Assembly (NCBI GenBank): GCA_026545225.1
Contig: CM048852.1
Coordinates: 13,736,146-13,800,145, forward strand
Reading direction: 5' to 3'
Length of the DNA stretch: 64,000 nt
DNA from: Cornus controversa
Taxonomy: Eukaryota > Streptophyta > Magnoliopsida > Cornales > Cornaceae
Below, piece after piece: positions 36,988-61,587 of the stretch (position 1 is the stretch's first letter; each line of letters starts with the position of its first letter). A model generated the notes under the pieces. It saw nothing but the letters and a program-made list of their open reading frames with translations, was not told where the DNA came from and did not search any database. The translations under genes were made by a program, and so were the position numbers.

Positions 36988-37061
36988 TGTGAGTTGCGCG
37001 GTGTAGAAGCGGTTGCGAAAAGTATTTTAGAACCTAGAGGGGAGGTGAATAGGATCACTTG

Positions 37062-37311
37062 TGTAATACCCCGCTCCAACACATGGTATGATATTGTCCG
37101 CTTTGGGCCATAGCCCACACGGTTTTGCTCTTGGGTTTTATCCCAAAAGGCCTCATACCATTTGAAGAGAACATACTACATATAAGCACATCCCCTTTTC
37201 CACACCCAGGCGATGTGGGATTGAGTACCCTGCACCCTGTCAGTGTGGTAGCTCAGCCTAGTGTCTGTCTTCACACCCGCCCACTCACACCCGTCCACAA
37301 GGGTTACTATA
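37062..37311 (+). mobile_element. TRIM-like solo LTR, 250 bp
   Basis: It starts TGTAATACCCCGCTCC and ends GGGTTACTATA, and is flanked by ACTTG (37057-37061) and ATTTG (37312-37316). It is absent from the right LTR at the exact matching point, so this is a clean presence/absence pair. The GATATTGTCCGCTTTGGGC and CCAAAAGGCCTCATACCA blocks are ones I associate with plant TRIM elements. That family assignment is from memory. Confidence 0.75.
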
Positions 37312-38084
37312 ATTTGCTCGTTTGCTTAATTTTTAATTAATTCAATTTTAAGTCCAATTAATTAAACAATTAAAGCAAGCAAATAAGTAAACTGCAAGTA
37401 AAGAAAAGAATGCACCAGATATACGTGGAAACCCAAGGCGGGAAAAACCACGGAGGGAGGCGGCACGCCTCAGGAAACCAATTCACTATGATGAAGCAAA
37501 GTACAACAGACTCTGTCTCAGTCTCACACCCCTCTTCACTCTGTCAAGGATCTGATGCGGAACACCTCAGACTTATGATTGCGACAACACGTCCAACTGC
37601 TGCAGACTTCCGGCTAACGTCACCACCCTTACAGAAAGGTTGCTGGAAGAACCAAAATACTCAGCAAGTATTTTGTTCCCTTCGTAGTGCAATCTGGTCA
37701 CCTTTCTTCCTCAGCAAGCAAGCAAGCGAAGAACCTTCAATCCAATGTTCTGATCAGCAAATAGATTTGATGCAATCTCTGAGCAGCTAATCAGAAGTAG
37801 AACACCATCCTAGAAATCACTCGTGTAGTATGGATGTGTGTTCTTAAAAATATATAAACCCTAATTATTATGTATATACTTTCTCTCTTTAAAACTAATA
37901 TTTCAGGGCTTCTTTTTCACACCCTTTGTAGAGAAAATATGGATACATATATATAGGCAAGGAAGTCCTAATTCTACTTGGAAAAGAAGTTAAATACCAA
38001 AATAGAACTTTCCTAGAAGTTTCAAACCCAATAGGAATCAGAATTTTCGTCAAAATTTATTTCCTATTTGGAACAGGCTAAGTG

Positions 38085-38187
38085 GGACCGGTGCCAAATA
38101 AATAGGACCGGTGGGACTTTTTGAAAACCTGCAGAACCCATCTTACCGAGAAAAGTTGGACCGGTCCTAAATATTGGGGACCGGTCC
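38085..38187 (-). promoter_or_regulatory. GGACCGGTCC palindrome pairs, 3' LTR
   Basis: Motifs start at 38085, 38105, 38158 and 38178. The last two are perfect 10-bp palindromes and the first two are half-altered (GGACCGGTGC, GGACCGGTGG). Within each pair the spacing is exactly 20 bp. The block lies ~130 bp upstream of the LTR's TATA-like box on the minus strand, that is, in U3. The right LTR has the same arrangement. Confidence 0.8.
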
Positions 38188-38439
38188 TACTTTGAAAAAC
38201 CCTAAACTTTTCATTTAAACCTTGGTTTTTCAAAATAGGCTCGGAACTAAAAGGTGCAGAGTGTCCTCACCATACTTCCCTGTACTCTATGGTGTTCATA
38301 CTGATTTGTCAGCTTCCATGCACTTGAGTGTCAGCTCGAAGATGTCGATGATCGGTTACATAAAATAACATGAAACTTACAACTCGATCATTCAGGTTTT
38401 GATCAACGAAATATGCCAATTACAAATTTATATGTCACA

Positions 38440-38451
38440 ATCTCCCCCTTT
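38440..38451 (-). promoter_or_regulatory. Copia polypurine tract
   Basis: AAAGGGGGAGAT on the minus strand lies directly before the 3' LTR start (TGTGAC), where plus-strand DNA priming is expected. Confidence 0.85.
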
Positions 38452-38930
38452 GGCAATTTCATGACAAAACCACTTTGACAATCAATAACCTAACCCATTG
38501 GAAAAATTAGATTACAAATTTGCCCAAATACACAGAAATATAGAGCTGATCATCAGAAGCTTTACTTGTGTGTTCAAGACGGTTAGTAAAAACCTGTTGT
38601 ACCTGCACATCTCTTAAACAACACAACCTGTGAAAAGCTTAATAATGAAAGATAATCATATATCAATATCTCCCCCTTAATCTAATAAATATTTATCCCC
38701 ATTTGCCAACAATATTATCTCCCCCTTTTTGGAACAAATTGACAAAGAGCTAGCAAAAAAAAGATATAGATAAATCATGAAGCACATAGAGACAAACATA
38801 ATCATCATCACTGATCAAATAAATATCCAAAACATATCAGTTGATGGAATAAACCAAAATAAATAATCTAGACATCAAAGATAAAGAAATTAACCATAGT
38901 CTAGAACAAAAATATATTAAGACCTAAAGT

Positions 38931-39983
38931 CTAATCATCCTCTACATCATCAGCAGCCTTATCAGAAGTAGCAGGGTCAAGCTTGTCTATCCTAGCATGT
39001 AGGCGATCGAACCCTTGCTGAATGAACCTGAGAACTTGGTTCATCTGATTGGCCGTCACAGGTGTGTCAGTAGCAGGAAGTTGGAAAACTCCACGACCCC
39101 CAGACACAGCCTGACCAGCTTCTTGACTGAGCTCATAAGCTTTCCTATCCTTCTCTTTCTTGTTGACTGAACGAGTAATTGAGGTAGCATCAATTATCCC
39201 TTTCGGTTTTTCAACATCTGCTCCATCAGGAATAGGAACCCTTGCACCTCTCAGAATAGCCATGATAATCTGTGGGAAGGGTAAGGCTGATGATGACCTA
39301 GAGTGTCGAGTAGCTAGAATCATGGTACGCATGATTGTTGCAGGAAGATTGATGGGATCCTCTCGAACAATATGATATAGTAGCTCGGCTTGACTCTTGA
39401 TCAAATTACCTTTATGATCATGAGGATCAAGGTTGTAGGAGACCACCAAATTTAATGCCGACACATTGTGTGTGATATAAAGTGAAGGCAACCTATCAAC
39501 AAGTCTAGGGGCATTGGGTATACATAACTCCCTAATCATGTCATCCATGGTTGGTCGGTTTGGATCCTCAATTTGATATGGCAAAACTAAGCCATTTTCA
39601 ATCTCTGGGACTCCCAATATATTGGCAATTATATCCTTGGTAACCTCAACCCGAACACCATAACATTTGGTCACAAAAGTGAGGTCATCCAGGCTCGATG
39701 TAATGATATTACCATAGAAATATCGAACCATGTTCGGCTTGACAATCTCCCGAAGATCACATAGAGACTCCCAACCATTATCCTCAAAATATTGCACAAA
39801 ATCCAATTCCCATTCTTGTTTAATCGCCACAAGATTCACTTTCCTTTCTATCCTCATAGCTCGACATCCAATGATGTTTATGAAAGTGTTGTAGTTAAAA
39901 TCATCTTCAAACATGTTTCTAGTAAACACAATTCGATTATTTGCACTTGTGGACGCATCATTTCGTCCCCGTTTGCGTGCCAT
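38931..39983 (-). CDS. Extra ORF of the Copia element: putative plant transposon protein
   Basis: An intact frame of 350 codons from MARKRGRNDASTS; an in-frame ATG 45 bases upstream exists, but this start parallels the MARVKN start of the Athila extra ORF. It contains FEDNGWESLCDLREI, MVRYFYGNI, GVRVEVTKDIIANILGVPEI, then SLYITHNVSALNLVVSYN, LYHIVREDPINLPATIMRTM and a C-terminal amphipathic stretch (QVLRFIQQGFDRLHARIDKL). This fits the plant-only domain annotated as 'putative plant transposon protein' (PF20167-like), whose biochemical role is unknown. It follows gag in the space where pol would be. Palindrome pairs lie ~340 bp upstream. No stops or shifts are present although gag has one. Confidence 0.8.
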   Translation of the reverse strand: MARKRGRNDASTSANNRIVFTRNMFEDDFNYNTFINIIGCRAMRIERKVNLVAIKQEWELDFVQYFEDNGWESLCDLREIVKPNMVRYFYGNIITSSLDDLTFVTKCYGVRVEVTKDIIANILGVPEIENGLVLPYQIEDPNRPTMDDMIRELCIPNAPRLVDRLPSLYITHNVSALNLVVSYNLDPHDHKGNLIKSQAELLYHIVREDPINLPATIMRTMILATRHSRSSSALPFPQIIMAILRGARVPIPDGADVEKPKGIIDATSITRSVNKKEKDRKAYELSQEAGQAVSGGRGVFQLPATDTPVTANQMNQVLRFIQQGFDRLHARIDKLDPATSDKAADDVEDD

Positions 39984-40325
39984 TAACACCACAATGAATG
40001 GGATAAAAAATATAGTCAAGAGTTCCATTTGTACTTTTTGTCGAACACTTTGTGTGCAAGTCTTTAAACCTCAATTTTCAAAACAATTTATTTGCACAAT
40101 TTCTCCCAAATCAATACTCAATCAACCCAAACTCCAAAAGTTCAATCCCAACCTCCAATATCAATCAATCACAAAGAAATTTAGATGAAGAGAAATGTGT
40201 GTGAGTTGGAGTGTTTTTAAGAGAGTTTGAGAGTTAGAGATATGAGTGTATGTGAGTGAGAATAAGTGAGGGGTTTTAAGCCAAAACGCGCGCGCAGAAT
40301 CAACATTCTGGGCATTCGCTAAGTG

Positions 40326-40419
40326 CGACCGGTCCTCATATTTGGGGACCGGTCCAACTTCTTTCTGTTCCTCAGAACCTGCAGAAGTGCGACTGGTGCT
40401 CAATAATGGGGACCGGTCC
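40326..40419 (-). promoter_or_regulatory. GGACCGGTCC palindrome pairs upstream of the Copia extra ORF
   Basis: Motifs start at 40326, 40346, 40390 and 40410. The members of each pair are again exactly 20 bp apart. 40346 and 40410 are perfect GGACCGGTCC, and the other two are variants. The sequence between pair members resembles that of the LTR pairs (A/T-rich ending TTGGGG or ATGGGG). Downstream on the minus strand lie a CTTAAAA box and a CT-rich leader with repeated CTCAC before the ATG, as in a promoter plus 5' UTR. Confidence 0.75.
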
Positions 40420-41576
40420 AACTTTGTGAATTATGAAAAATTACACTTTGGACCTTTAATTCACCAAAAACACAGATCTTTAATCTGATTTAGCAATTTA
40501 GCACATAAAAAGTGAAAAATAAACACAAAATCAAAATAAACATATTTTTTAATTTTTTTTTTTTGATATTTTTCAAGAGAAAAAAAAACTAAAACATGAA
40601 TAATCTCATGAGAATAATCAAAACACATTTTTCAGAGAATAACATGAGTTCTAAAATTTCTGAACAATTTCAATTATTTATAAATGCAGAATTTTAAAAC
40701 CAATATATTGTCTTTAAAATTCATTCTCAAATTCATGATCATGACACAACTTCCAACACACAAATATTTATAAAAATTTAGAAATTCATCTAATAAATCC
40801 ATGTGTGTGTGTGCAATCCAACTTCATCAAAAATTAATCAAATTCCTTTGATTCATCATCTAAAACATATTGGATAATAAGCAAATATAACTCCACAAGA
40901 TCAATCATTTATTTTTCATTCGTCATCATTTTTTTTTCTTTTTCTAAGACGGTGGCTTTCACTCTTACAGGCAGCCAGCTATTTTCCTCAAAACAACTCT
41001 TTAACTTTTTAAAGATATCTCATTGGAGATTTACATTATAGTGGAAGCTACGAACACATACCGAAGGTAGCCTTTTCCTTTTGTCTTAGATTTTCAGCAA
41101 ATTTCCTATTTTCTTTTTCTTTTCATGCTGAATAAAAACATATATATTTTTTTTCATTTTTTTTCATTGATCATTTAGGCTTTCAATGCTACTCATACAA
41201 TATATTCTAGTCAACTTCACATTAGTTTTCAATCAATTTTCTTAGAGTTGGACTAGTGCACAAATTGTATGGACTCAGAAGATTTACCTCTAAAAAGAAA
41301 TAAATACAGCACATTGGTCATCAATGTTTAGATCATAAAATCAAGTACTTCATTCATTGACAAACTAAGTGTCCCAATTATGCATTCACAAATTAAAGTG
41401 AAATTTAAAAAGAACTATAAAGAATTCACATTATTTCTCAGAAAAATATAATTCTCATAATCTCATATGATTATTACTAAAAATAAACACAACTTATCCT
41501 AACCTAAAAGATATGGTCCAATGGAAAACAAATAATGAACATAAGCTCAATCCATGACCATCAAAGTTCTAATGAC
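40420..41576 (-). other. Copia internal spacer
   Basis: About 1.15 kb of AT-rich non-coding DNA between the gag stop and the palindrome pairs. There is no protease, integrase or RT motif on either strand; this is where pol is missing. Confidence 0.7.
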
Positions 41577-43655
41577 CTAGTTAGGGGGTTTTGCACCTAA
41601 AGACCTATTAGGAATAAATCCCATAGTATCAACAGGCACAAACTTCTCCAAATCTTCCTTTTTCATCCAGATAGTTTTAACATGCAATTTATTAGGAGAG
41701 AATTGTGGAGAAACAAAAACATTCTTCTTTTTATTTGAATTCTTTTTACCTTGAGACTTTTTGGGTTTGTTCCAATAATGTGACTTTTTAGCATGAACCC
41801 TATTCTTAGCAAAAGAATTATGCACATGAAAATCAGAATTAGAATGTCTTCTCTTTTTATAGCAATAGTGTTGACTATGTCCAGTCTTACCACAAAAAGA
41901 ACAATAAAGTACATTGGACACAACTTTTGCATGCACAGACTCGACTTGAGACTTAGGTTTGGGTTCAGACACAATCAAATTCTTGGGTTTAACAAAAACA
42001 GTATTTCCCTTAGATGATGACCCAACAAAACCTAATCCAGTTTTATCTCCTACAGGCTTACCAACACTAATCATGCTATCAAGCTTAATCTGTCCAGAAG
42101 TAAAAGCAATTAATTTCTCTTGTGATTTTTTCAATTCAGGCTCGAGAAAATTAATTCTAGCAATAAGAACATCTTTAGCAGAAATAGCTTGACTTACCTT
42201 GTTTTTGAGAAACTTGACTTTGCCTTGAAGATTCAGAATTTTAGCTTTACTTTCTTCAATCAACTTCACTTGATCTTCATTCTTTTTCTTCAAAGTCTCT
42301 TTCTCAAATTTTTCTTGCTTCAGCTTCTCAGATTTTTTATTATAAGCTTCCAGCAATTTCTCAAAAAGTTCTGGCAGCTTGCTTTCACATGGTTCTTCAT
42401 CAGACTGCTCAACTTCTGAATCGTCAGACCCTACTTGACTGAGAGTAGTGTACATCTCTGTTTCACCTACATCAGAAGAAGAATCATTAGCAGTATCATC
42501 ATTCAATAAAGCAACAAAAGCCAAAGAATCATTCTCAACAGAAGAATCACTATCGGAGTTCGAAGATTCAGACTCAGAGATAATAGCTTTCATAACTTTC
42601 TTGTTTGAAATTTTCTTTGCACTAAAGCTATTTTTCTTAGGACTTGGACATTGATTAGATGTGTGTCCTTTACCACCACATGTCCAACAAGTAACCTCAA
42701 TTTCCTTAGAGTCATCTTCTTTCTCTTTCCTTTCCTTACCTTTGGATGATGAGCTTTGATTTCAGAATTTAGAAGGATTTCCTTTTCTCAAATTTTTACT
42801 TTTTTCATATTCAAGAATCTTTCTAAATTTCCTAGCAAGGACTGCAACATCATTATCTGAATCATATTCAATCCTTTCAATTTTTTCAACTTCAGATTTT
42901 GAAGAATTTAAACAATTTGACAAACTTGAAGACTTTGAAGTCTTTGATATTTTTAAAGCCAAATTTTTTGATTTCTGAAGTTTTGGATATTTCATCTCAA
43001 AAGTTTGAATTGATCCAGCTAACTCAGCCACCTCCATAGAATCTACATCTCTGCTTTCATCTAAGGCTTCCAACTTAGCTTGGAACCTATCAGGCAATGA
43101 TCTCATGATTTTTCTAATAATCTGAAAAGAAGGAATTTTCTCTCCAAGGTTAGCACTACTTTGAACAATATCATTAAGCCTAGAATAAAAATCAGAAAAC
43201 ATCTCATCTTCATCCATTCTAATTGTTTCAAATTTAGTGGCAAGCATTTGTAGCTTAGATCTCCTTACCTTGGTGGTACCCTCATGAGTTACCTGTAAAA
43301 TATTCCATGCTTCTTTCGAAGTGGAACATGCAGAAATTCTAGCAAATTCAGAAGGAACAACAGAATTAAATATAGCATATAAACCCTTGTTGTTATTATT
43401 TGCATCTTCATGTTCAGCATTAGACCATGTTGCCTTATCCTTTTCTACAATCACAACAGCATCACCATCACTAGTTGTAATGGTAGGAATTTTATAGCCA
43501 TTCTCTACAGCCATCCAAACTCTCTCTCCTTGAGATTTTAAAAAGGCTTTCATGCGAGACTTCCAGAAAGTATAATTTAAACCATCAAACAAAGGAGTTC
43601 GCTGAATCGATCCACCCTCTTTCATACTTGATTTCATGATAATTTTTGAAAACAA
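41577..43655 (-). pseudogene. Copia gag (UBN2 type) with one premature stop
   Basis: One frame of 693 codons with a single TGA at ~42762. The N-terminal part has FDGLNYTFWKSRMKAFLKSQ, ACSTSKEAWNILQVTHEGTT, KLQMLATKFETIRMDEDE and IMRSLPDRFQAKLEALDES, the UBN2/gag-polypeptide pattern of plant Copia. After the stop the frame continues with the knuckle CWTCGGKGHTSNQC, an acidic and coiled-coil region (SKAKILNLQGKVKFLKNKV), and a second knuckle CSFCGKTGHSQHYC. It ends with NRSLGAKPPN where pol would otherwise follow. The stop splits capsid from both knuckles. It may be read through or simply be a null mutation. Confidence 0.92.
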
Positions 43656-43710
43656 AAATAAATTTTGATTTTTTTAAAATTACTTCGCAAGGAACTACTC
43701 ACAAATTAGA

Positions 43711-43729
43711 GAACACTGCTCTGATACCA
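43711..43729 (-). promoter_or_regulatory. Copia primer-binding site (initiator Met tRNA)
   Basis: TGGTATCAGAGCAGTGTTC on the minus strand, two bases inside the 5' LTR, complementary in type to the 3' end of initiator methionine tRNA. Confidence 0.9.
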
Positions 43730-43731
43730 AT

Positions 43732-44928
43732 TGTGAGTTGCGCGGTGCGGAAGCGGTTGCGAAAAGTATTTTAGAACCTAGAGGGGGGGTGAATAGGATC
43801 ACTTGCTCATTTGCTTAATTTTTAATTAATTCAATTTTAAGTCCAATTAATTAAACAATTAAAGCAAGCAAATAAGTAAAGTGCAAGTAAAGAAAAGAAT
43901 GCACCAGATATACATGGAAACCCAAGGCGGGAAAAACCACGGAGGGAGGCGGCACGCCTCAGGAAACCAATTCACTATGATGAAGCAAAGTACAACAGAC
44001 TTTGTCTCAGTCTCACACCCCTCTTCACTCTGTCTAGGATCTGATGCAGAACACCTCAGACTTATGATTGCGACAACACGTCCAACTGCTGCAAACTTCC
44101 AGCTAATGTCACCACCCTTACAGAAAGGTTGTTGGAAGAACCAAAATACTCAGCAAGTATTTTGTTCCCTTCGTAGTGTAATCTGGTCACCTTTCTTCCT
44201 CAGCAAGCAAGCAAGCGAAGAACCTTCAATCCAATGTTCTGATCAGCAAATAGATTTGATGCAGTCTCTGAGCAGCTAATCAGAAGTAGAACACCATCCT
44301 AGAAATCACTCGTGTAGTATGGATGTGTGTTCTTAAAAATATATAAACCCTAATTATTATGTATATACTTTCTCTCTTTAAAACTAATATTTCAGGGCTT
44401 CTTTTTCACACCCTTTGTAGAGAAAATATGGATACATATATATAGGCAAGGAAGTCCTAATTCTACTTGGAAAAGAAGTTAAATACCAAAATAGAACTTT
44501 CCTAGAAGTTTCAAACCCAATAGGAATCAGAATTTTCGTCAAAATTTATTTCCTATTTGGAACAGGCTAAGTGGGACCGGTGCCAAATAAATAGGACCGG
44601 TGGGACTTTTTGAAAACCTGCAGAACCCATCTTACCGAAAAAAGTTGGACTGGTCCTAAATATTGGGGACCGGTCCTACTTTGAAAAACCCTAAACTTTT
44701 CATTTAAACCTTGGTTTTTCAAAATAGGCTCGGAACTAAAAAGTGCAGAGTGTCCTCACCATACTTACCTGCACTCTATGGTGTTCATACTGATTTGTCA
44801 GCTTCCATGCACTTGAGTGTCAGCTCGAAGATGTTGATGATCGGTTACATAAAATAACATGAAACTTACAACTCGATCATTCAGGTTTTGATCAACGAAA
44901 TATGCCAATTACAAATTTATATGTCACA
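43732..44928 (-). repeat. Copia 5' LTR
   Basis: A 1197-bp intact LTR with TG...CA ends. The palindrome pairs lie at 44574, 44594, 44647 (mutated GGACTGGTCC) and 44667, with the same 20-bp pairing as in the other LTR. A TATA-like CTATATATATG lies ~130 bp downstream on the minus strand. Confidence 0.95.
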
Positions 44929-45985: not shown

Positions 45986-47405
45986 TGATGTGGTCGGAAC
46001 TAAATTATATTGTAAGCTTAATTTTGCCCTTTTTATCAAAATATAATTTAACCACTCGCAAGAGCACGAATCTTTGTAGATAAGGTTCTATATAGAGGGT
46101 ATCGATCCCACGAGAACTAGTCGTTAATTGTCATAAAGAAAGATTAATTCTACTTTAATTCTAAAGAAACAGGTTTTTGGTTTTGTGTTTAAAACTATTG
46201 TGTAAATGAAATGACGATAAAATTAAAGAGTAAAGTCGGGAGAGAGAACTAGGGTTGGTTTCCACCACTAGCCATTCACATGTTCATAAGTGTAGCAAGC
46301 ATGGGGTTCATTAATTAAATGCCTAACAATGTCATTAGGCTTGTGACCTCAATGACATATCAAAAGATCAATGTGTGTGCTAACCTATCATAATCCATCT
46401 TCAACAAGCATAGCTCTTCAACCTAACTAACTACCTAATTACCCTACTCTCTACGTAAACACTACATGCATCCAAACTACCTTGTCTTGGCATGGTCTAT
46501 ACAAACTAGCATCACACATTCATTTAAACACCATTATCTAACCATCATTTGCACTTCTTGTGGAATATGCAAATGTTGTGCATTCAAGTGACAAAACCTA
46601 CTCTAAGACAAGAATAAATTCCCAATCAAATGAATATATATAAGAAATGTATTTGTGTACATAATCACTAGGCTAAATAATCAACATTTAATTACAAATC
46701 CCCAAGAGCTACAAAGATGAACAAGTTTACATGGCTAGGGGTTGAAACCAACACCCTAGTAAAAGAGTTAGTTGCTCATGGTTGCCTTGCACCCTTCCAT
46801 TGATGAAGAGAATGAAGCTTCTTGGTCTGGTTCAGCTTTTCTCTTCCTCTCCCGAAGGTCTCTCTCTTCTTCTTCTGATGTGTATGTTGAGACTCATGAG
46901 ATATGTGGCTTTTGGTGCTTTTTGTATGCTTTTTGGCTCCTTTGGGCCCACCATATATATATATATATCATTATATATATCTCTTGTATCAAGAAGGCCC
47001 CCAAAAGTCTTGTTCAAGTCAGACAATCCCCCTAAGTCGTGCAAAAAGGGGGATTTTGTTGCAAGTGGGAGAGCAGGTGAGCAAGTGGCCAAGTGGGCTC
47101 TGCAGCATTTTGATTGATCGAAATTGCATTTCGATTGATCGAGATTTCAATCAATGGAAATGAGATTTTGATCAATCGAAATCTCGATTGATCGAAATCC
47201 ACATCTCGATTGATCGAAATGCCTTGGCAACATTTTCTGATTTCATCTCTTGACTGCAGAAAGCTTCCAACTTTGCTCCATTTACTCCAATACCTGCAAT
47301 ACATCAAAAACACAAAAATATCGTAAACATATCTCGGTAAACGCAAAAACGGAACTAACATATGCAATAAAGAGGGTTCAAATGCATAGAATTGAACACT
47401 TATCA
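45986..47405 (-). repeat. Athila 3' LTR
   Basis: A 1420-bp LTR, the same length as the right copy. It contains the palindrome array at 47107-47220 and a (TA)n TATA region at ~46954-46981. Reading frames inside it are duplicated in the other LTR and are not genes. Confidence 0.96.
47107..47220 (-). promoter_or_regulatory. TCGAT-YR-ATCGA palindrome array, 3' LTR
   Basis: Six copies of the ~18-bp dyad ATTTCGATTGATCGAAAT and its variants, as in the right LTR. Five of the nine differences between the two LTRs fall inside this ~115-bp block, and four of those are CpG/TpG-type changes. Confidence 0.85.
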
Positions 47406-49210: not shown

Positions 49211-50434
49211 CTACTCGAGGGCGGGTGGTGGTGGTGGTGGGTCGGTGGGAGCAGAAGTGGAGGTGGAGGCTCGACCTGCGAACAGGAACTGCAGATCCTG
49301 CCGGAAGGCTCGGAACTCGTCTAAGATCGCTCTCTGGCCCTGTACCAGAGAAGAAATGTCCGTCTGAATACCTGCCAGCTGACTCTGCGTCACCTGGACG
49401 TGCTCGTCAAAACCCTGCTGGAGCCGCTCTACGTCAGCTGCCAGGCAGGAATAGCCTGTCGCTAAGATATCATGCCGCTCTGCAGCGACATCCATCTCCT
49501 CCTCCCCCATCTCCCCGTCCTCTGTCTCAGCCCCTGCTGGCTCTCCCTCATCCATCTCCACCGGGGCATCCATATCTACATCGTCTGGTGGATCACCCTG
49601 ATGGTCCTGTCGCTCTAAGTGTCGCCTCACCCGATCCCACTGAGTATATGTGAAACGGGTGGGCGGTGCCAACTGAATGTCAGTCCGACTGACCGGTATA
49701 CTGGCACTGCTGAGAAAAGCAGCGATCAGGAATGGAAAGGGAAGACGCCAACTCGCTGCTCTCCTCTTCCTCTTGTTGACGAGGCCATCCCAAACTTTGT
49801 GCATCTGCCCCCAGATAAGCGATGGGACAGAAAACCAAGCGCCCGTATGGAAAGCATAGAGGCAACTGAGGAGGTCACCCCTGCGCTCGGCCACGTGCTG
49901 CAACGGACACGCGTTCTTGAGGAGAACGGTGTCCAGGAACCAATATCTGCTCGGGCACATTGACTTGGACGTGCAGTTGTGGTTGGGCGTGGTAAATGCC
50001 CCGCCACACATGTCCATCACTATCGAGAAGAGCGTGGTATCTGCTGGGAGCGCGGCACTATAGAGTGGCTGACCGTCCGGGCCAACCATGTCCGGCGGCT
50101 GCTGGTGAGGAATGCCGAGCATATGAGCAATCCGGCTCGGCGTAATCGTGATCGTGACAGTGGCCACGGTAGTCTCGAGTGTATCTGGCACTGTGCAGGA
50201 GTAGGTCATGTGCTCGTAAAAGACCTGCACTAGGCGCTCGTGTGCCATGTCGGTGGGAGGCACACATAGCCGGTCGAGGCGACGCCTCCTGAGCTCGGCA
50301 ACCGTCCACTCGGTGTCGGGACGCCTCTCGAACTCGGCTAAGTCGAAAACCTGCTCCGGGTGGAACTTCCGAGACCGGAAGGCTCGCCCGGGCACGTCAC
50401 GAGCAGCACCGGCGGCGTTTTTCACTCTCGCCAT
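49211..50434 (-). CDS. Extra ORF of the Athila element: putative plant transposon protein
   Basis: An intact frame of 407 residues from MARVKNAAGAARD; the longer frame from 50464 would start before the predicted splice acceptor at 50449. It is clearly GC-richer than its surroundings. The core has RSRKFHPEQVFDLAEFERRP, RLVQVFYEHMTYSC, TVTITITPSRIAHMLGIPHQ, then SRYWFLDTVLLKNACPLQHV, RRGDLLSCLYAFHTG and PFPFLIAAFLSSASIPVS. An acidic stretch (~residues 285-325), a coiled-coil-like region (AADVERLQQGFDEHVQVTQS) and a proline tail follow. The layout parallels the Copia extra ORF: an 'FYxx' block, an '...I.xxLG(V/I)P' block, and a final xxLQQGFD or xFIQQGFD helix. The function of this plant-only domain is unknown. 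Its intactness while pol is broken suggests recent selection, or chance. Confidence 0.85.
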   Translation of the reverse strand: MARVKNAAGAARDVPGRAFRSRKFHPEQVFDLAEFERRPDTEWTVAELRRRRLDRLCVPPTDMAHERLVQVFYEHMTYSCTVPDTLETTVATVTITITPSRIAHMLGIPHQQPPDMVGPDGQPLYSAALPADTTLFSIVMDMCGGAFTTPNHNCTSKSMCPSRYWFLDTVLLKNACPLQHVAERRGDLLSCLYAFHTGAWFSVPSLIWGQMHKVWDGLVNKRKRRAASWRLPFPFLIAAFLSSASIPVSRTDIQLAPPTRFTYTQWDRVRRHLERQDHQGDPPDDVDMDAPVEMDEGEPAGAETEDGEMGEEEMDVAAERHDILATGYSCLAADVERLQQGFDEHVQVTQSQLAGIQTDISSLVQGQRAILDEFRAFRQDLQFLFAGRASTSTSAPTDPPPPPPALE

Positions 50435-50448
50435 CGCCTCTGAACAGT

Positions 50449-50834: not shown

Positions 50835-51475
50835 CTCATGAGGAAGAAGATGAACGGCTCAACCGAAGAAAACTCCACGCGCAGCCGCGAAGAGAAGATC
50901 GCGCAGATGCTAGCGGCGGATCGGACTGCGTCGGATGGCGGCGGATGATCGAGAATGGAAGATCGAGTGCTCGGGAGTGCTTGGAGAAGGCTTGGATCGC
51001 ACAGAGGGAGAGAAGAAGTCGGATGGTCTTTTAAAATGGGAGGGAAGCCCAACGGTTTAAATAGATTTTTGGCTCACGTGCAGGCTCCGCGTGCCTTTCG
51101 ATTGATCGAAATGTGCATTTCGATCAATCGAAATTTCGATTGATCGAAATCTTGCTTCGATCAATCGAAACTAACTTCGATGGATCGAGATTGTCTCTTC
51201 GATCAATCGAACATTCCTTCTCTAAATCACATTTTTACTTCGATCAATCGAACATTTAATTGATGCAATCGAACTTTTATTTCGATCAATCGAAATTCCA
51301 TTTCGATCAATCGAAAGTTTCGATCGATCGAAGACCTATCGAAGTGCAATCGAAGAATACCACCTCTCGGGACTTTGGACTTGGCAAATCTCTGCAATTT
51401 TTCGATCAATCGAAACCAAAATTTCGATCAATCGAAATTTTCGATTGATCAAAATCTTGGTTTCGATCAATCGAA
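50835..51475 (-). promoter_or_regulatory. Internal promoter of the Athila extra ORF with palindrome array
   Basis: Reading 5' to 3' on the minus strand, a block of 14 dyads of the form TTCGAT-(CA/TG)-ATCGAA (plus strand starts 51097, 51119, 51135, 51156, 51176, 51198, 51239, 51281, 51302, 51319, 51401, 51423, 51440 and 51462) is followed by a TATA-like CTATTTAAA (51056-51064). A CT-rich, GC-rich leader and the splice donor at 50834 come next. Spacings are 20-22 or 16-17 bp, or near multiples of ~21 (41, 42, 82). The same dyad is found in U3 of this element's LTRs. Confidence 0.75.
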
Positions 51476-55484: not shown

Positions 55485-57275
55485 TCATTGAGGAAAAGGA
55501 ACCGGAGGTTCATAAGAGGTGTCAAGATTTGGAATCGATGATGCCACAACTTCACTTGCCTTTCCTTTTGGATTTGAAGAGGTATTTTGCAAATTTGGAT
55601 TTAATGGAAATAATTTTGGATTTAATTGGGATTCTTTTGGATTTTTAGGTTGCTCTTGAAATTCCTTTCTCTCTTCCTCTCCTACCTTGGAGTTAATGAT
55701 TTTACCACTCCTCAAGGTTGTGATTGATTGAACTTGCTCTGGAGGAGCATTACAAGTTGAAGATGATGGATCTTCAATCATATGCACACCCTTGGGATTC
55801 GCCACCGGTTGACTTGGCAACTTACCTTCCTCCCTTCTATTTAAGGCATTAGCTAGTTGCCCAATTTGAGCTTCTAACCTAGCCATAGATTGAGCATTGG
55901 CCTCAAGCTTAGAGATTGATTGAGAGTGAGTTTGCAATAAGCGGGTGTTGGCCTCAAGATTGCTTATCACTCGTTCTTCAAAGCTTTGGCTTCTTGGAGG
56001 AGGCGGTGGTTGTTGGTAATTTGATCTTTGATTGTAAGGTTGAGGGTTTGGCCTATAAAGAGGCTGTTGAGATTGGGAATTAAAAGAACTTTGCCCTTGG
56101 AAAGAGGGACTTGATTCTTGATTCTTCCATGAAAAAGCCGGATGGTTCTTGTAACCAGGATTGTACGTGTTCGAATATGGATCATTCATTTGTTTAGCGT
56201 ACACGGCATTCGCTTGCTCTTGAGCATAATCGGAAGATTGCCCGGCAATAGGACAATATCGCACAAAATGCGAAGTGCTATAGCAAAACGAACACCCCTC
56301 CTGATTTTGGACAGATTGGTTAGGAATAGGCAGCCCATTTTTCATGATTAAATCCATTTTTTGGGACAAGGCTTCTACGTGCATGGCAACCTCATCTACC
56401 CGTGAAATCTCATGCACTCCTCTACAAGGTTGGGTGGCCTTCCCTTTCCTAGTGGAGGAGCGTTGAGCTGAATTGTTGCTTAGGGTTTGAAAGAGTTTCC
56501 ATGCCTCATCGGGGCTTTTCAAAAGGTACCCACCCCCACACGCGGAGTCTATCATTTGCCTATGTTGCTCACTCACCCCATCATAAAAACTTTGCACTAG
56601 CTGCCATTTTGGGACAGCATGATGCGGACAAGATTTTAAGAGATCTTTTAACCTCTCCCACGTCTCATGGAATTGTTCTTGGTCAATTTGGGTGAATCCG
56701 GTGATTGCTCGCCGAATATCACTTGTCTTACCCATTGGGAAGTATTTTTTTAAGAACTCTATTTGCATTTCCGCCCAAGAATGGATTGAGTTGGGTTCTA
56801 GGGAATTGAACCAACTTCTAGCCTTATCTTTTAGGGAAAATGGAAACATACGTAGCTTTAGATCATCTTCCGTAAAGTGTGGTACACGAATGGTGGAACA
56901 CACGGAAAAGAAGTAATCTAAGTGCCGGTATGGATCCTCATTAGGAAGACCGTGAAAGTTGTTAAGAAGGTTGAGGGTGGAGGACTTTATTTCAAATTGA
57001 TTTGCCGCTACATCCGGAAATTGAATACATGAAGGTACTTCAAATGTAGTCGGAAGGTAAAAGTCCATAAGCAACTCTCCTTGAGGAGGTGGTGGTGGAG
57101 GCGGTTGTTCATGATTAAAAGGAGGTAGACCGAGAGGTTGTCTCTCATTTGGTTCCATGTTTTCAGTTCTAGGCAAAATAGGGTCCCTAGAGGTTCCTCT
57201 ACGTTGTCTAAGTGTTCGTTCAAGTTCACTATTACAAGGAAGCAAAGGAAGTGACAATGACCGTCTACCTAGCAT
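55485..57275 (-). CDS. Athila gag
   Basis: A 596-codon open frame. It has a proline-rich N-terminus and the capsid-like gag domain (FHGLPNEDPYRHLDYFFSVC, LRMFPFSLKDKARSWFNSLE, EFLKKYFPMGKTSDIRRAIT, ERLKDLLKSCPHHAVPKWQL). A CCHC knuckle CSFCYSTSHFVRYC, a Gln/Pro-rich stretch and a predicted coiled coil (SISKLEANAQSMARLEAQIG) follow. A second in-frame Met within MEPNERQP may be the true start. It ends in TGA, and protease follows in the same frame, so a gag-pol product would need readthrough. The plus-strand element at 61882 encodes the orthologous protein. Confidence 0.93.
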   Translation of the reverse strand: MLGRRSLSLPLLPCNSELERTLRQRRGTSRDPILPRTENMEPNERQPLGLPPFNHEQPPPPPPPQGELLMDFYLPTTFEVPSCIQFPDVAANQFEIKSSTLNLLNNFHGLPNEDPYRHLDYFFSVCSTIRVPHFTEDDLKLRMFPFSLKDKARSWFNSLEPNSIHSWAEMQIEFLKKYFPMGKTSDIRRAITGFTQIDQEQFHETWERLKDLLKSCPHHAVPKWQLVQSFYDGVSEQHRQMIDSACGGGYLLKSPDEAWKLFQTLSNNSAQRSSTRKGKATQPCRGVHEISRVDEVAMHVEALSQKMDLIMKNGLPIPNQSVQNQEGCSFCYSTSHFVRYCPIAGQSSDYAQEQANAVYAKQMNDPYSNTYNPGYKNHPAFSWKNQESSPSFQGQSSFNSQSQQPLYRPNPQPYNQRSNYQQPPPPPRSQSFEERVISNLEANTRLLQTHSQSISKLEANAQSMARLEAQIGQLANALNRREEGKLPSQPVANPKGVHMIEDPSSSTCNAPPEQVQSITTLRSGKIINSKVGEEERKEFQEQPKNPKESQLNPKLFPLNPNLQNTSSNPKGKASEVVASSIPNLDTSYEPPVPFPQ

Positions 57276-57537: not shown

Positions 57538-57555
57538 TCCCCGGCAACGGCGCCA
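57538..57555 (-). promoter_or_regulatory. Athila primer-binding site (Asp tRNA type)
   Basis: TGGCGCCGTTGCCGGGGA on the minus strand, six bases from the 5' LTR. It is complementary to the 3' end of plant aspartate tRNA, the primer used by Athila/Tat-lineage elements. Confidence 0.93.
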
Positions 57556-57561
57556 AAATTT

Positions 57562-58981
57562 TGATGTGGTCGGAACTAAATTATATTGTAAGCTTAATTT
57601 TGCCCTTTTTATCAAAATATAATTTAACCACTCGCAAGAGCACGAATCTTTGTAGATAAGGTTCTATATAGAGGGTATCGATCCCACGAGAACTAGTCGT
57701 TAATTGTCATAAAGAAAGATTAATTCTACTTTAATTCTAAAGAAACAGGTTTTTGGTTTTGTGTTTAAAACTATTGTGTAAATGAAATGACGATAAAATT
57801 AAAGAGTAAAGTCGGGAGAGAGAACTAGGGTTGGTTTCCACCACTAGCCATTCACATGTTCATAAGTGTAGCAAGCATGGGGTTCATTAATTAAATGCCT
57901 AACAATGTCATTAGGCTTGTGACCTCAATGACATATCAAAAGATCAATGTGTGTGCTAACCTATCATAATCCATCTTCAACAAGCATAGCTCTTCAACCT
58001 AACTAACTACCTAATTACCCTACTCTCTACGTAAACACTACATGCATCCAAACTACCTTGTCTTGGCATGGTCTATACAAACTAGCATCACACATTCATT
58101 TAAACACCATTATCTAACCATCATTTGCACTTCTTGTGGAATATGCAAATGTTGTGCATTCAAGTGACAAAACCTACTCTAAGATAAGAATAAATTCCCA
58201 ATCAAATGAATATATATAAGAAATTTATTTGTGTACATAATCACTAGGCTAAATAATCAACATTTAATTACAAATCCCCAAGAGCTACAAAGATGAACAA
58301 GTTTACATGGCTAGGGGTTGAAACCAACACCCTAGTAGAAGAGTTAGTTGCTCATGGTTGCCTTGCACCCTTCCATTGATGAAGAGAATGAAGCTTCTTG
58401 GTCTGGTTCAGCTTTTCTCTTCCTCTCCCGAAGGTCTCTCTCTTCTTCTTCTGATGTGTATGTTGAGACTCATGAGATATGTGGCTTTTGGTGCTTTTTG
58501 TATGCTTTTTGGCTCCTTTGGGCCCACCATATATATATATATATCATTATATATATCTCTTGTATCAAGAAGGCCCCCAAAAGTCTTGTTCAAGTCAGAC
58601 AATCCCCCTAAGTCGTGCAAAAAGGGGGATTTTGTTGCAAGTGGGAGAGCAGGTGAGCAAGTGGCCAAGTGGGCTCTGCAGCATTTCGATTGATCGAAAT
58701 TGCATTTCGATTGATCGAGATTTCGATCAATCGAAATGAGATTTCGATCAATCGAAATCTCGATTGATTGAAATCCACATCTCGATTGATCGAAATGCCT
58801 TGGCAACATTTTCTGATTTCATCTCTTGACTGCAGAAAGCTTCCAACTTTGCTCCATTTACTCCAATACCTGCAATACATCAAAAACACAAAAATACCGT
58901 AAACATATCTCGGTAAACGCAAAAACGGAACTAACATATGCAATAAAGAGGGTTCAAATGCATAGAATTGAACACTTATCA
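57562..58981 (-). repeat. Athila 5' LTR
   Basis: 1420 bp, TGATG...TATCA, nine differences from the left LTR by eye. On the minus strand the order is start, a short leader, the palindrome array (58683-58796), a TATA region (~58530-58557) and a transcribed part. The array therefore lies in U3. Confidence 0.96.
58683..58796 (-). promoter_or_regulatory. TCGAT-YR-ATCGA palindrome array, 5' LTR
   Basis: Six 18-bp dyads start at 58683, 58704, 58720, 58741, 58757 and 58779. The type form is ATTTCGATTGATCGAAAT (8-bp arms around TG or CA). Spacings are 21, 16, 21, 16, 22. It sits ~130 bp upstream of the TATA region. Confidence 0.88.
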
Positions 58982-58986
58982 ATTGT

Positions 58987-59466
58987 TGTCAATTATTGGA
59001 TTCCTAACATGGAGGTTGACCACAAACTAGATTTTAAGAATGTCACAAAAGTTGATCACATCGTTAAATTTTTTACATGACATCTAACTCTTAGGGAGGG
59101 AGGGTGGACAACATTTTCATTATCCCCGTTGAACCAAACCATTAAATTTCTTCCTTTTTTGGTGGCTTTTGTAGATAATTGTAATGAAACATAAACATTT
59201 GTGTAAGATTGTGATTGTTAATAAAAAAGGCCGAACTGGGTTGCACTAGCAGGTTGACCACCCCTGAAATTTTTGACAATGTTATTATGTAATTGGACAG
59301 TGAGAAAAATAAATGTTGTTTTCATTTTGATTTAATTTTGTGTTGAGCTCTGAGGGCATTTTTAAATTTTTTATTAATCATATGTGGTGCCTTTACTTAG
59401 ACTGTTGAAGTTAATAAAATGATAGAAGGACATTTGTTTTGTAATATTGGTCCTTTACTTTTTCAG
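58987..59466. other. Host DNA right of the Athila element
   Basis: Continuation of the 45765-45985 flank. I find no upstream alpha-adaptin exon and no other gene. It ends with a TTTTTCAG acceptor for the pseudo-exon at 59467. Confidence 0.55.
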
Positions 59467-59745
59467 GTTTTTAGATGTGATCCTTCAGTTGATTGACAAA
59501 GCAGGAGATTTTGTCAGTAATGACATTTGGTTTCGTGTCATATAGTTTGTTACAAACAACGAGACCTACAGGTGACTATAACTTTTGTTACATATGCTCC
59601 ATTCTATAAGTGGCTACGTCTTTATGTGTAATGCATCATTTGATTAATATTTGCCTTCCATTTCATATATTTTTATCAGTCTTATACAGCAGTGAAAGCC
59701 AGGTAGTATCTTGATAAGCCTGCTATACATGAGACAATGGTCAAG
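59467..59745 (+). pseudogene. AP-2 complex alpha-adaptin pseudo-exons
   Basis: Exon A (59467-59571) follows a TTTTTCAG acceptor and encodes FLDVILQLIDKAGDFVSNDI, WFRVI, a stop, then FVTNNE, and ends at a GT donor. Exon B (59679-59745) follows TATCAG and encodes SYTAVKAR, a stop, then YLDKPAIHETMVK before GTGTGT. This is the highly conserved trunk segment of plant AP-2 alpha adaptin, the large clathrin-adaptor subunit of endocytosis. Exon A has CAG to TAG and a one-base loss near its end, and exon B has a TAG at a conserved Glu. The next exon (VSAYLLGEYG...) is not found. Preserved splice sites indicate a genomic, not cDNA-derived, fragment. Confidence 0.87.
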
Positions 59746-60214
59746 GTGTGTATGCTCTGCCTATGATTTGTGTACATTTCTCATAATGTGTGTGAAAGAA
59801 TGCCTTAAAGTTTATGTGGACGGGATAGTGCTGATAATTTCTTTACCAGATTTAAATATTTGTATGATGCTTTATTGCGGAGAAAAAATTGGTATAGCCA
59901 ACCCCAAGTTGTGATACATTATTGAGTGGAGCTCCATTGCTGAGCTAAATTTTAGTTGTTATCTATTGTTCACTTCACCTCTGGGATGGACATTTTCTTC
60001 AGATGACATGTTATTGATACAAGGAATGCTTTATAAGGATTTGCTTGAGAGGTTGTTGCGTGTTAGTTGAGCAAGATAACTGTTGTACGTGAGAGAAAAG
60101 CTAGAACTGGGAAATCTTCTGCCATCTAAGATTGTTGGAAGAATACCCATCATAGTTGCACTCTTATCTCTTGGACTTGTCACTTTAGTGGTAGGTCAAT
60201 GGAGACTAACATCA
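59746..60214. other. Non-coding DNA before the second Athila copy
   Basis: Starts as the intron after exon B. No further adaptin exon or other gene is recognised. It ends where similarity to the Athila LTR begins. Confidence 0.55.
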
Positions 60215-61587
60215 TAGTTCCGTTTTTACGTTTACCGAGATATATTTACGGTATTTTTGTATTTTTGATGTATTGCAGGTATTGGAGTAAATGGAGCAAA
60301 GTTTGAAGCTATTAGCAGTTCAAGAGAAAAATCAGAAATTGCAGCCAAAGGCATCTCGATCAATCGAGATGTTGATCTCGATCAATCGAGATCTCGATTG
60401 ATCGAGATCTTATTTCGATTGATCGAAATCTCGATCAATCGAGATCCAATCTCGATTGATCAAGATTCTGCAGAATCCACTTGGCCACTTGCTCACCTGC
60501 TTTCCCACTTGCAACAAAATCCCCCTTTTTGCACGACTTAGGAGGATTGTCTGACTTGAACAAGACCCTTGGGGACCTTCTTGATATAATAGATGTATAT
60601 ATTGATATATATATATATGGTGGGCCCCAAGGTTGAAAAAGGAGCCTTAAAGCACAAAATAGTCACATATCTCACATATCTCTCAACACACATCAGATTA
60701 TCCAAGGAGAGAGACCTTCGGGAGAGGAAGAAGAGGAGCTGAACCAGACCAAGAAGCTTCACTTTCTTCATCAATGGAAGGGTGCAAGGCTGCCATGAGC
60801 AACTAACTCTTCTACTAGGGTGTTGGTTTCAACCCCTAGCCATGTAAACTTGTTCATCTTTGTAGCACTTGGGATTTGTAATTACATGTTGATTATTTAG
60901 CCTAGTGATCATGTACACTAATACATTTCTTTTATATATTCATTTGATATGGAGTTTATTCTTGTCTTAGAGTAGATTTTGTCCTTTGAATGCACAACAT
61001 TTGCATATTCCACAAGAAGTGCAAATGATGGCTAGATAATGGTGTTTAAATGAATGTGTGATGTTTGCTTGTATAGACCATGCCAAGACAAGGTAGTTTG
61101 GATGCATGTAGGGTTCACTTAGAGAGTAGGGTAATTAGGTAGTTAGTTAGGTTGAAGAGCTATGCTTGTTGAAGATGGATTATGATAGGTTAGCACACAC
61201 ATTGATCTTTTGATATGTCATTGAGGTCACAAGCCTAATAACATTGTTAGGCATTTAATTAATGAATCCCATGCTTGCTACACTTATGAACATGTGAATG
61301 GCTAGTGGTGGAAACCAACCCTAGTTCTCTCTCCCATCCTTTACTCTTTAATTTTATTGTCATTACATTCCCGCAATAGTTTATAAACAAAAACTCAAAA
61401 CCCTATTTTTAGAATTAAAGTGGAATTAATCTTTCTTTAAGAGAATTACGACTAGTCCTCGTGGGATCGATACCCTCCATATAGAACCTTATCTACAAAG
61501 ATTCGTGCTCTTGCGAGTGGTTAAATTATATTTTGATAAAAAGGGCAATAATTAAGCATACAATATAATCCGAGTTTAGCCACATCA
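60215..61587 (+). repeat. 5' LTR of the second Athila copy, left-truncated
   Basis: 1373 bp, corresponding to all but the first ~47 bp of the 1420-bp LTR. It carries the palindrome array at 60353-60466 and a TA-rich TATA region at ~60596-60617. It ends CCACATCA. Confidence 0.9.
60353..60466 (+). promoter_or_regulatory. TCGAT-YR-ATCGA palindrome array, second Athila LTR
   Basis: Six 18-bp dyads start at 60353, 60375, 60391, 60412, 60428 and 60449 (spacings 22, 16, 21, 16, 21). Four are ATCTCGAT-CA/TG-ATCGAGAT, with the third arm base changed symmetrically relative to the other element. One has the ATTTCGAT form and one is imperfect. Confidence 0.88.

What the first reader, a model, noticed from the sequence alone, without database searches (positions are those of the whole stretch)
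36988..61587. Two unrelated retrotransposons share one regulatory design: phased palindromes in U3 and again upstream of an extra ORF
Seen: the Copia-type element (GGACCGGTCC) and the Athila-type element (TTCGAT-YR-ATCGAA) use different palindromes. Both place repeats of the palindrome upstream of the LTR TATA region and a second set upstream of an extra 'putative plant transposon protein' ORF that starts MAR[K/V]. In both, motifs are spaced about two helical turns apart (20 bp exactly in the Copia; mostly 20-22 bp in the Athila). Known: both lineages are LTR elements but are distant, and the extra domain has no known function. Inference: the extra protein, or a host dimeric factor, binds its own family's palindrome and controls both promoters, a cis/trans module that different elements acquired and re-coded.
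Basis: partly seen in the sequence, partly recalled or inferred. Interest (0 to 1): 0.92.

Follow-up and report, generated by a model that had tools for sequence, protein, structure and literature searches.

The report
Retrotransposons with private palindromic control switches
Several retrotransposon families in one plant genome each carry their own spaced palindromic DNA motif both at their main promoter and in front of the same kind of extra gene, which suggests that each family makes a protein that recognises and switches on its own copies.

Summary
On the minus strand lie a Sirevirus (Ty1/copia; GGACCGGTCC) and an Athila (Ty3/gypsy; TCGAT-YR-ATCGA). Each has palindromes in U3 upstream of a TATA box and again upstream of an extra ORF with a PF20167-type domain. 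In the same genome a third, Sirevirus-like family, with an ORF about 19% identical to the window Sirevirus ORF, has a third palindrome (AGTCGACT). Close pairs are almost always 20 bp (Sirevirus) or 22 bp (third family) apart; the Athila mixes 20-22 with 16-17 bp. The ORFs are under purifying selection. An abundant Athila variant has both arms changed (CTCGAT..ATCGAG).

The Sirevirus half is prior art: Bousios et al. 2010 described palindromic 'RM boxes' in Sirevirus LTRs and upstream of ENV, and called them Sirevirus-specific. New here: the design in Athila, PF20167 in all three ORFs, fixed pair spacing, and re-coding of both arms.

Most likely (about 0.5) the PF20167 protein binds its own family's palindrome and activates or de-silences both promoters, like VANC of VANDAL transposons. 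Binding is inferred; a host factor is not excluded.

The parts
43803..44928 (-). Sirevirus 5' LTR (the part aligned to the 3' LTR; it runs on to about 43740, before the PBS)
   Evidence: 98.4% identical to 37314-38439; 18 of 1126 differ
37314..38439 (-). Sirevirus 3' LTR, cut short at its outer end (37314)
44574..44676 (-). U3 palindrome array of the 5' LTR: 4 copies of GGACCGGTCC (0-2 mismatches) as two 20-bp pairs, 53 bp apart; TATATATAT about 130 bp downstream (near 44440)
38085..38187 (-). The same U3 array in the 3' LTR
40326..40419 (-). Internal palindrome array, about 300 bp upstream of the extra ORF (40326, 40346, 40390 with 3 mismatches, 40410)
38931..40028 (-). Extra ORF, 365 aa, PF20167 (Transposase_32), with hydrophobic leader MELLTIFFIPFIVVL then MARKRGR
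   Evidence: Pfam E 1.1e-23, 84.5 bits, over the cut-off of 45; dN/dS 0.10-0.12 against five relatives
42762..43673 (-). Sirevirus gag (PF14223)
41577..42761 (-). Zinc-knuckle ORF of gag; no RT or integrase found in this element
   Evidence: tblastn of a copia RT and of an integrase fragment (both from L061) against the window gave no match
38442..38449 (-). Terminal polypurine tract AGGGGGAG followed by AT/TG (Sirevirus hallmark); further copies at 38670-38677 and 38719-38726
43718..43726 (-). Primer binding site TATCAGAGC (Sirevirus hallmark)
57561..58981 (-). Athila 5' LTR; 5-bp target site duplication ATTGT at 58982-58986 and 45981-45985
   Evidence: 99.4% identical to 45985-47405; 9 of 1421 differ, ends read
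45986..47405 (-). Athila 3' LTR
58685..58794 (-). Athila U3 array: 6 palindromes TCGAT-YR-ATCGA, spacing 21, 16, 21, 16, 22; AT-rich TATA stretch about 130 bp downstream
47109..47218 (-). Same array in the 3' LTR
51097..51475 (-). Athila internal array: 14 palindromes, spacing 22, 16, 21, 20, 22, 41, 42, 21, 17, 82, 22, 17, 22
51057..51063 (-). TATTTAA, TATA-like, about 34 bp after the last internal palindrome; 5' splice-like GGTAAG at 50835 and CAG acceptor-like sites at 50456/50451 ahead of the ATG
   Evidence: sequence reading; no transcript evidence
49211..50434 (-). Extra ORF of the Athila, about 407 aa from ATG (MARVK); PF20167-like domain; long C-terminal helix predicted
   Evidence: Pfam E 1e-8, 35.7 bits, below the cut-off; the 100 best of 6211 candidates in the genome, the window's own among them, are 96-100% identical; dN/dS 0.20 against L036
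51647..54373 (-). Athila pol (RT, RNase H, integrase)
55485..57275 (-). Athila gag (PF03732)
60355..60464 (+). U3 array of a second, inverted Athila copy (LTR 60215-61588): 5 of 6 palindromes have both outer bases changed (CTCGAT..ATCGAG)

Best explanation
Each family carries a self-recognition circuit. The extra PF20167 ORF makes a nuclear, probably dimeric protein (basic N-terminus, PF20167 domain, C-terminal helix that is long in two of the three families). This protein binds its own family's palindrome; two sites 20-22 bp apart suggest a pair of dimers side by side. The sites in U3 drive the genomic RNA and the sites upstream of the ORF drive the ORF itself, so the protein activates both promoters, and probably also keeps them unmethylated, in all copies of its family. 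SHOWN: the arrays, the ORFs, purifying selection on the ORFs, private motifs per family, near-fixed spacing of close motif pairs in two families, motif conservation above spacers in two families, and change of both arms in an Athila variant. INFERRED: binding by the ORF product, dimerisation, nuclear location, activation and anti-silencing.
For: Three ORF families about 19-24% identical go with three different palindromes in one host. Motif pairs genome-wide against the reversed pattern: TTCGATYRATCGAA at a fixed 21 bp 1833 and 0; AGTCGACT at a fixed 22 bp 931 and 16; GGACCGGTCC with any gap of 2-32 bp 838 and 1, and of the 50 sites listed 47 have gap 10 and 3 have gap 11; CTCGAT variant with gaps 1-31, 8482 and 0. 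In PF20167 loci not chosen by spacing, 51 of 53 AGTCGACT intervals under 40 bp are exactly 22 bp, with 22 distinct spacers (strands not merged), and 28 of 29 GGACCGGTCC intervals under 40 bp are 20 bp. Motif identity exceeds spacer identity in 6 of 6 Athila comparisons (0.982/0.971 at the closest, 0.955/0.805 and 0.944/0.778 at the widest); AGTCGACT motif columns diverge 0.035 against 0.084 in spacers and 0.068 outside. With motifs masked, U3 and internal arrays share almost nothing. In three coordinate groups on C1 the CTCGAT variant stands at distances that match U3, internal site and U3 of one Athila (inferred from coordinates). dN/dS is 0.10-0.12 (Sirevirus), 0.20 (Athila) and 0.19-0.39 (third family) between diverged copies. 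The window Sirevirus has lost pol but keeps gag, ORF and both arrays; 7 of 10 neighbouring array pairs listed are 6.46-6.54 kb apart, against 6.49 kb in the window, and 5 array pairs enclose a listed PF20167 hit. Nine of 10 listed PF20167 hits on C1 below 23.8 Mb have an exact spaced pair within 2 kb; chance is about 0.9% each. VANC precedent: PMC5735166 (passages).
Against: No binding, expression or methylation data. Both AlphaFold models are poor (pLDDT 37 and 40) and no known DNA-binding domain was found. The hydrophobic leader of the Sirevirus ORF could mean a secreted or membrane (env-like) protein. In the GGACCGGTCC family motifs are not more conserved than their spacers (0.047 against 0.027 internally, 0.022 against 0.018 in the LTR), though both are better kept than sequence outside. 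In the two Athila LTR comparisons motif identity (0.944, 0.931) is about that of the rest of the LTR (0.934). Copies of one family are not independent, so large counts exaggerate the evidence. ORFs within the third family that differ by 15-30% keep one motif, so change of motif together with protein was not caught. In PMC2829016 four RM elements lack ENV and six ENV elements lack RM.
Confidence: 0.5

Rival explanations
1. Host-factor sites. Each family has collected sites for a different host dimeric transcription factor in U3, and copied them to the internal promoter that expresses the extra (env-like or accessory) protein. The ORF is cargo, not the binder.
For: RM boxes in PMC2829016 are palindromic, and that paper's comparison with known plant sites mainly recovered stress-related factors (section 9). 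Four RM-bearing Sireviruses there have no ENV gene. A hydrophobic leader in the Sirevirus ORF would fit a non-nuclear protein. Some plant retrotransposons, such as ONSEN, are activated by host factors (passage in PMC12859917).
Against: Three motifs in one host, each private to one ORF family (0 of 30 loci hold both of the two motifs seen there). Arrays with near-fixed pair spacing and a variant with both palindrome arms changed at thousands of sites are easier with a partner that can change along with the element.
Confidence: 0.35
2. Passive or structural repeats. The palindromes are by-products of tandem duplication, or act as DNA or RNA hairpins, for example in packaging, dimerisation or strand transfer, with no protein reader.
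For: Arrays contain short repeated units: the Athila 21+16 bp unit, and repeats between motif copies in L061. U3 and internal Sirevirus arrays share an 11-bp match at the same offset, hinting at one old duplication.
Against: Palindrome and spacing stay while spacers differ (22 distinct spacers at 22 bp). Outer bases of the two arms agree more often than not (37 T..A and 15 C..G against 21 mixed, odds ratio 5.0, p 0.004; six of the 19 row sets, picked to limit duplicates, rows still related). The arrays stand at promoter positions in three families.
Confidence: 0.1
3. The PF20167 protein acts through the palindromes but as a repressor or copy-number control rather than an activator.
For: The same architecture (sites at its own and the main promoter) fits negative autoregulation equally well; nothing measured here gives the sign.
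Against: Strong purifying selection on a gene carried by spreading elements argues for a benefit to the element. CpG observed/expected is raised around the arrays (masked Athila internal array 1.41 against 0.77 for the whole element; masked Sirevirus arrays 0.63-0.76 against 0.43), as if they escape methylation. The masked Athila U3 array gave 0, its spacers being very short.
Confidence: 0.1

Closest known systems
Sirevirus RM boxes (Bousios et al. 2010, PMC2829016; sections 9, 10, 19 and passages read)
   Same: Element-specific palindromes in many copies in the upper LTR ahead of a conserved TATA box and again upstream of the ENV gene: 9 of 9 RM elements with ENV, 0 of 4 without. CpG-rich clusters. 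Motifs of the same style (CGGTCGACCG, CGGACCGTCCG, ACAATCGATTGT).
   Different: That paper compared Ty1/copia elements and called the motif Sirevirus-specific. In the parts read it did not tie ENV to PF20167, did not propose that ENV reads the motif, and did not mention pair spacing. Here the design also occurs in a Ty3/gypsy Athila.
VANC / VANDAL anti-silencing system of Arabidopsis (PMC5735166, passages read)
   Same: Transposon-encoded protein, family-private short motif in dense non-coding arrays, related proteins with different targets, motif arrays that evolve together, methylation loss as output.
   Different: VANDALs are Mu-like DNA transposons; VANC has DUF1985 and DUF287, not PF20167 (no DUF1985 match at E up to 10). 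VANC21's motif YAGTATTAY is not a palindrome. Binding was shown there and is inferred here.
Athila/Tekay additional ORFs (PMC11728184) and Retand TRP28 ORFs (PMC11963269); passages read
   Same: Extra ORF; PF20167 in a sunflower Athila aORF with a predicted nuclear signal; TRP28 predicted to bind DNA, in elements that often hold family-specific tandem repeats.
   Different: No palindrome arrays described in the passages read; TRP28 ORFs are antisense and a different domain.
PMD proteins MAIN/MAIL1 (PMC7156037, passages read)
   Same: Transposon-related domain proteins in plants linked to TE silencing and to a promoter motif ('DOWN').
   Different: Different domain; direct binding of the motif is open there too.

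Membership tests
Sirevirus (window Copia element) | Multiple AGGGGGAG polypurine tracts, the terminal one followed by AT/TG | tested here: met
   3 copies; terminal AGGGGGAG-AT-TG at 38449
Sirevirus (window Copia element) | PBS TATCAGAGC and poly-C signal at the LTR end | tested here: met
   PBS at 43726; CACCCCCCCTCTAGG near the 5' LTR end; the 3' LTR is cut before that point
Sirevirus (window Copia element) | Sirevirus RT/pol phylogeny | not testable with these tools
   no RT found in this element
Sirevirus RM-box system (both window elements) | Element-specific palindrome, many copies, upstream of TATA in LTR and upstream of the extra gene | tested here: met
   the Sirevirus has 4 copies in the LTR and 4 internally (one with 3 mismatches), about the paper's minimum of 8 per element; the Athila has 6 and 14
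Sirevirus RM-box system (both window elements) | CGG-CCG core | tested here: not met
   GGACCGGTCC has CCGG inside, not CGG..CCG; the Athila and AGTCGACT motifs lack it (Tnd-1 in the paper also lacks it)
Sirevirus RM-box system (both window elements) | Found in Sireviruses only | tested here: not met
   the Athila has gypsy-type RT/integrase order and gag and no AGGGGGAG or TATCAGAGC
PF20167 Transposase_32 | Pfam score over the curated cut-off of 45 bits | tested here: inconclusive
   Sirevirus ORF 84.5 bits, over; Athila ORF 35.7 bits, below, but matches positions 2-177 of 177
VANC-type anti-silencing system | DUF1985 domain | tested here: not met
   no match listed for the 10 ORFs scanned, E up to 10, HMMER filters on
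VANC-type anti-silencing system | Protein binds the family motif and causes methylation loss | not testable with these tools
   no binding or methylation data; raised CpG observed/expected only
Athila (window gypsy element) | Ty3/gypsy gag-pol with an extra ORF between pol and 3' LTR | tested here: met
   the lineage name is taken from the finding and from recall, no RT tree made

The most novel reading that the evidence does not exclude
PF20167 proteins are a widespread class of retrotransposon-encoded, sequence-specific activators or anti-silencing factors of plant Copia and Gypsy elements: an LTR-retrotransposon counterpart of VANC, in which protein and palindrome change together so that each family wakes only itself. 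This would explain the long-puzzling 'envelope-like' genes of Sireviruses and Athila.
Probability: 0.38. Interest if true: 0.88.

Novelty: new variant of a known kind. Interest (0 to 1): 0.7.

Why it matters
Plant 'envelope-like' genes have no agreed function. If they encode private activators that read palindromes, the question becomes testable with one binding assay per family. It would also mean that sequence-specific anti-silencing, so far shown for Mu-like DNA transposons, arose or spread in the two main retrotransposon superfamilies of plants, and it would supply a set of short-motif DNA-binding domains with different specificities.

Tried and rejected
PF20167 relatives were sought in the protein collection (none at E <= 0.001) and in viral contigs (none), so all comparisons come from one unnamed plant genome. 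Solved structures: only a weak keratin coiled-coil match (E 0.17). Two AlphaFold jobs gave poor models, so no fold search was run. A link to DUF1985 (the VANC domain) was looked for and not found. ORF exchange between Athila and Sirevirus was considered and dropped: the window Sirevirus ORF is nominally closer in identity to Athila (24%) than to the other Sirevirus-like ORF (18-21%), but its best E-value is to a member of the latter, so nothing is resolved. A genome-wide count of asymmetric motifs (TTCGATYRATCGAG) did not complete. Copies of the pol-less junction (window 40430-41640) could not be counted, so the spread of the pol-less form rests on array distances alone. Literature searches for this design outside Sireviruses; nothing seen in those listings, several of which were cut at 15-20 papers.

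Limits of the controls: the other LTR element in the window (1-5448, perhaps cut by the window edge) shows no such array; that is one element. No genome-wide control set of elements without the ORF could be fetched. L001-L030 are the best-scoring 30 of 150 scored hits (4447 candidates) and fall in two families only; the script took a wrong frame for L011, frames of several damaged loci start late, and L002 has no exact upstream copy. Searches fixed the gap in the pattern, so they do not test spacing; searches do. In some searches motifs were picked on one sequence or on the majority row, which favours them slightly. The LTR of the third family is inferred: no LTR pair lies within L061, but one identical motif pair stands at both C1:5416966 and C1:5426163 around a PF20167 hit.


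Full report
WHAT IS THERE. The window (C8:13736146-13800145 of a 771.7 Mb plant assembly) holds two elements on the minus strand. The first (37314-about 44930) has copia-type gag (PF14223), a zinc-knuckle ORF, no RT or integrase found, and an extra ORF with PF20167. It is a Sirevirus by its non-coding marks: three AGGGGGAG tracts, the last followed by AT/TG, the PBS TATCAGAGC, and a poly-C stretch at the 5' LTR end. Its LTRs differ at 18 of 1126 sites and the 3' LTR is cut at 37314. The second (45986-58981, with target duplication ATTGT) has gypsy-type gag and pol, LTRs differing at 9 of 1421 sites, and an extra ORF between pol and the 3' LTR with a PF20167-like domain. A second Athila copy lies inverted at 60215 to the window end.

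THE ARRAYS. Both elements have a palindrome array in U3 about 130 bp ahead of a TATA stretch and another array upstream of the extra ORF. Counts exceed shuffles for both. The Athila internal array is the strongest palindrome cluster of the window in a gapped scan, while the Sirevirus array taken alone is not striking by exact clustering. The Athila internal array is followed by TATTTAA, a pyrimidine-rich stretch, and a GGTAAG donor-like site with acceptor-like sites just before the ATG, which reads like a promoter with a spliced leader; no transcript was seen. Spacing: 20-bp pairs in the Sirevirus; 10 of 18 intervals at 20-22 bp in the window Athila, the others 16-17, 41-42 and 82.

PF20167 gave 150 scored hits of 4447 candidates in this genome and none in 14 control genomes. 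The 30 best loci fall in two families: 9 with GACCGGTC cores (the window Sirevirus family) and 21 with AGTCGACT cores; 30 of 30 hold at least two copies of one motif and 0 of 30 hold both. In the 11 loci whose ORF opens with MPPRTMGG, exact AGTCGACT copies lie 223 to 1020 bp upstream of that start. Locus L061 shows the layout: pol with copia RT (PF07727), an internal array, the ORF, AGGGGGAG-type tracts, then a second array ahead of a TATA box. The second array is taken to be in the 3' LTR; L061 does not reach the other LTR, but one identical motif pair stands at C1:5416966 and C1:5426163 on both sides of a PF20167 hit. So the third family is also Sirevirus-like. The three ORF families are about 19-24% identical.

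GENOME-WIDE COUNTS. Pairs against the reversed pattern: TTCGATYRATCGAA at a fixed 21 bp 1833 and 0; AGTCGACT at a fixed 22 bp 931 and 16; GGACCGGTCC with any gap of 2-32 bp 838 and 1, of which 47 of the 50 sites listed have gap 10 and 3 have gap 11. The 15 TTCGAT loci fetched, some of them overlapping, are all this Athila family, LTR or internal. In loci chosen by PF20167 and not by spacing, 51 of 53 AGTCGACT intervals under 40 bp are 22 bp with 22 distinct spacers (strands not merged), and 28 of 29 GGACCGGTCC intervals under 40 bp are 20 bp. Of 10 listed PF20167 hits on C1 below 23.8 Mb, 9 have an exact spaced pair within 2 kb and 1 (15.86 Mb) has none; chance is about 0.9% each.

SIGNS OF CONSTRAINT. 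Motifs are more conserved than spacers in 6 of 6 Athila comparisons; in the two LTR comparisons, however, motif identity (0.944, 0.931) is about that of the LTR outside the array (0.934). In the AGTCGACT family motifs diverge 0.035, spacers 0.084 and sequence outside 0.068. In the GGACCGGTCC family motifs do not beat spacers (0.047 against 0.027 internally, 0.022 against 0.018 in the LTR), though both are better kept than sequence outside (0.114 and 0.049). With motifs masked, U3 and internal arrays show almost no similarity; the Sirevirus pair keeps an 11-bp match at the same offset. In the inverted Athila LTR 5 of 6 palindromes have both outer bases changed (T..A to C..G). This variant makes 8482 pairs genome-wide against 0, and in three coordinate groups on C1 it stands at distances that match U3, internal site and U3 of one element (inferred from coordinates, most letters withheld). 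Over six of the 19 row sets the outer bases agree (37 T..A, 15 C..G) more than they disagree (21 mixed; p 0.004), though the rows are related. The ORFs are under purifying selection: dN/dS 0.10-0.12 (window Sirevirus against five relatives, dS about 0.86), 0.20 (Athila against L036), 0.19-0.39 (third family, five pairs with dS over 0.09); three very close pairs give 0.37-0.46. The pol-less Sirevirus form seems to recur: 7 of 10 neighbouring array pairs listed are 6.46-6.54 kb apart, and five array pairs enclose a listed PF20167 hit; this rests on distances only.

THE PROTEIN. From the alignment, all three have a basic N-terminal stretch and the PF20167 region; the Athila and third-family ORFs add an acidic linker and a long helical tail, the window Sirevirus ORF only a short tail. 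The models, made for the Athila and third-family ORFs, are poor overall, but both show a hairpin then helix in the PF20167 region and one long C-terminal helix. No DNA-binding family was matched. The Sirevirus ORF has a hydrophobic leader in the same frame, which weakens the nuclear reading unless translation starts at MARK.

HOW IT LIKELY WORKS. The simplest model is that the extra protein is a dimer that reads its own family's palindrome in both promoters. Shown: architecture, motif privacy, spacing, constraint. Inferred: binding, sign of the effect, chromatin outcome. CpG observed/expected is raised at the arrays even with motifs masked (Athila internal 1.41 against 0.77 for the element; Sirevirus 0.63-0.76 against 0.43), though the masked Athila U3 gave 0 because its spacers are very short. 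This agrees with the CpG islands reported for Sirevirus RM boxes and would fit protection from methylation.

WHAT IS KNOWN. Bousios et al. 2010 (PMC2829016; sections 9, 10, 19 and passages read) described palindromic RM boxes in 13 Sireviruses, upstream of the LTR TATA box and, in 9 of 9 with an ENV gene, upstream of ENV; 4 without ENV have LTR boxes only (Fisher p 0.0014 on their table). They called the motif Sirevirus-specific, suggested nuclear factors, and noted six ENV-bearing elements without boxes. PF20167 was seen in a sunflower Athila ORF with a predicted nuclear signal (PMC11728184, passages). VANC proteins of VANDAL transposons bind family-private motif arrays and remove methylation (PMC5735166, passages); a 2026 meeting report mentions unpublished VANC-DNA structures (PMC12859917, passages); a 2026 paper leaves open whether Athila ORFs act on methylation (PMC12844716, passages).

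VERDICT.

Noticed in passing
window 1-5448: LTR element with LTRs of about 1950 bp (99.3% identical) around only about 1.5 kb of internal sequence; looks non-autonomous and shows no palindrome array.
   Followed up: partly
window 5608-6143 and 32210-33206: Tandem repeats with units of 67 bp and about 243 bp.
   Followed up: no
window 60215-64000: Second Athila copy in inverted orientation 1.2 kb from the first, about 91% identical, carrying the CTCGAT..ATCGAG motif variant.
   Followed up: yes
window 38931-40028: Hydrophobic leader MELLTIFFIPFIVVL in frame before MARK, also in relatives; undecided whether it is translated.
   Followed up: partly
G000 C1:1906380, 4164765, 5896712: GGACCGGTCC pairs with an 11-bp gap (21 bp) and different spacers: 3 of 50 listed; perhaps another family with the same motif.
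   Followed up: no
G000 C1: Several CTCGAT arrays are about 8.8 kb apart instead of 11.6 kb, two of these groups with a further array 3.9-4.0 kb from one end: perhaps a gag-pol-shortened Athila family that keeps the ORF module.
   Followed up: no
window 24149-24817, 34588-35724, 36324-37175, 10055-10387: LINE-like RT fragment (PF00078), weak endonuclease-like ORF (below cut-off), DUF4283 ORF, and a Myb/SANT-like ORF (PF12776).
   Followed up: no
L061 2914-3169: Tandem repeats of about 87 bp between motif copies in the third family's presumed LTR.
   Followed up: no
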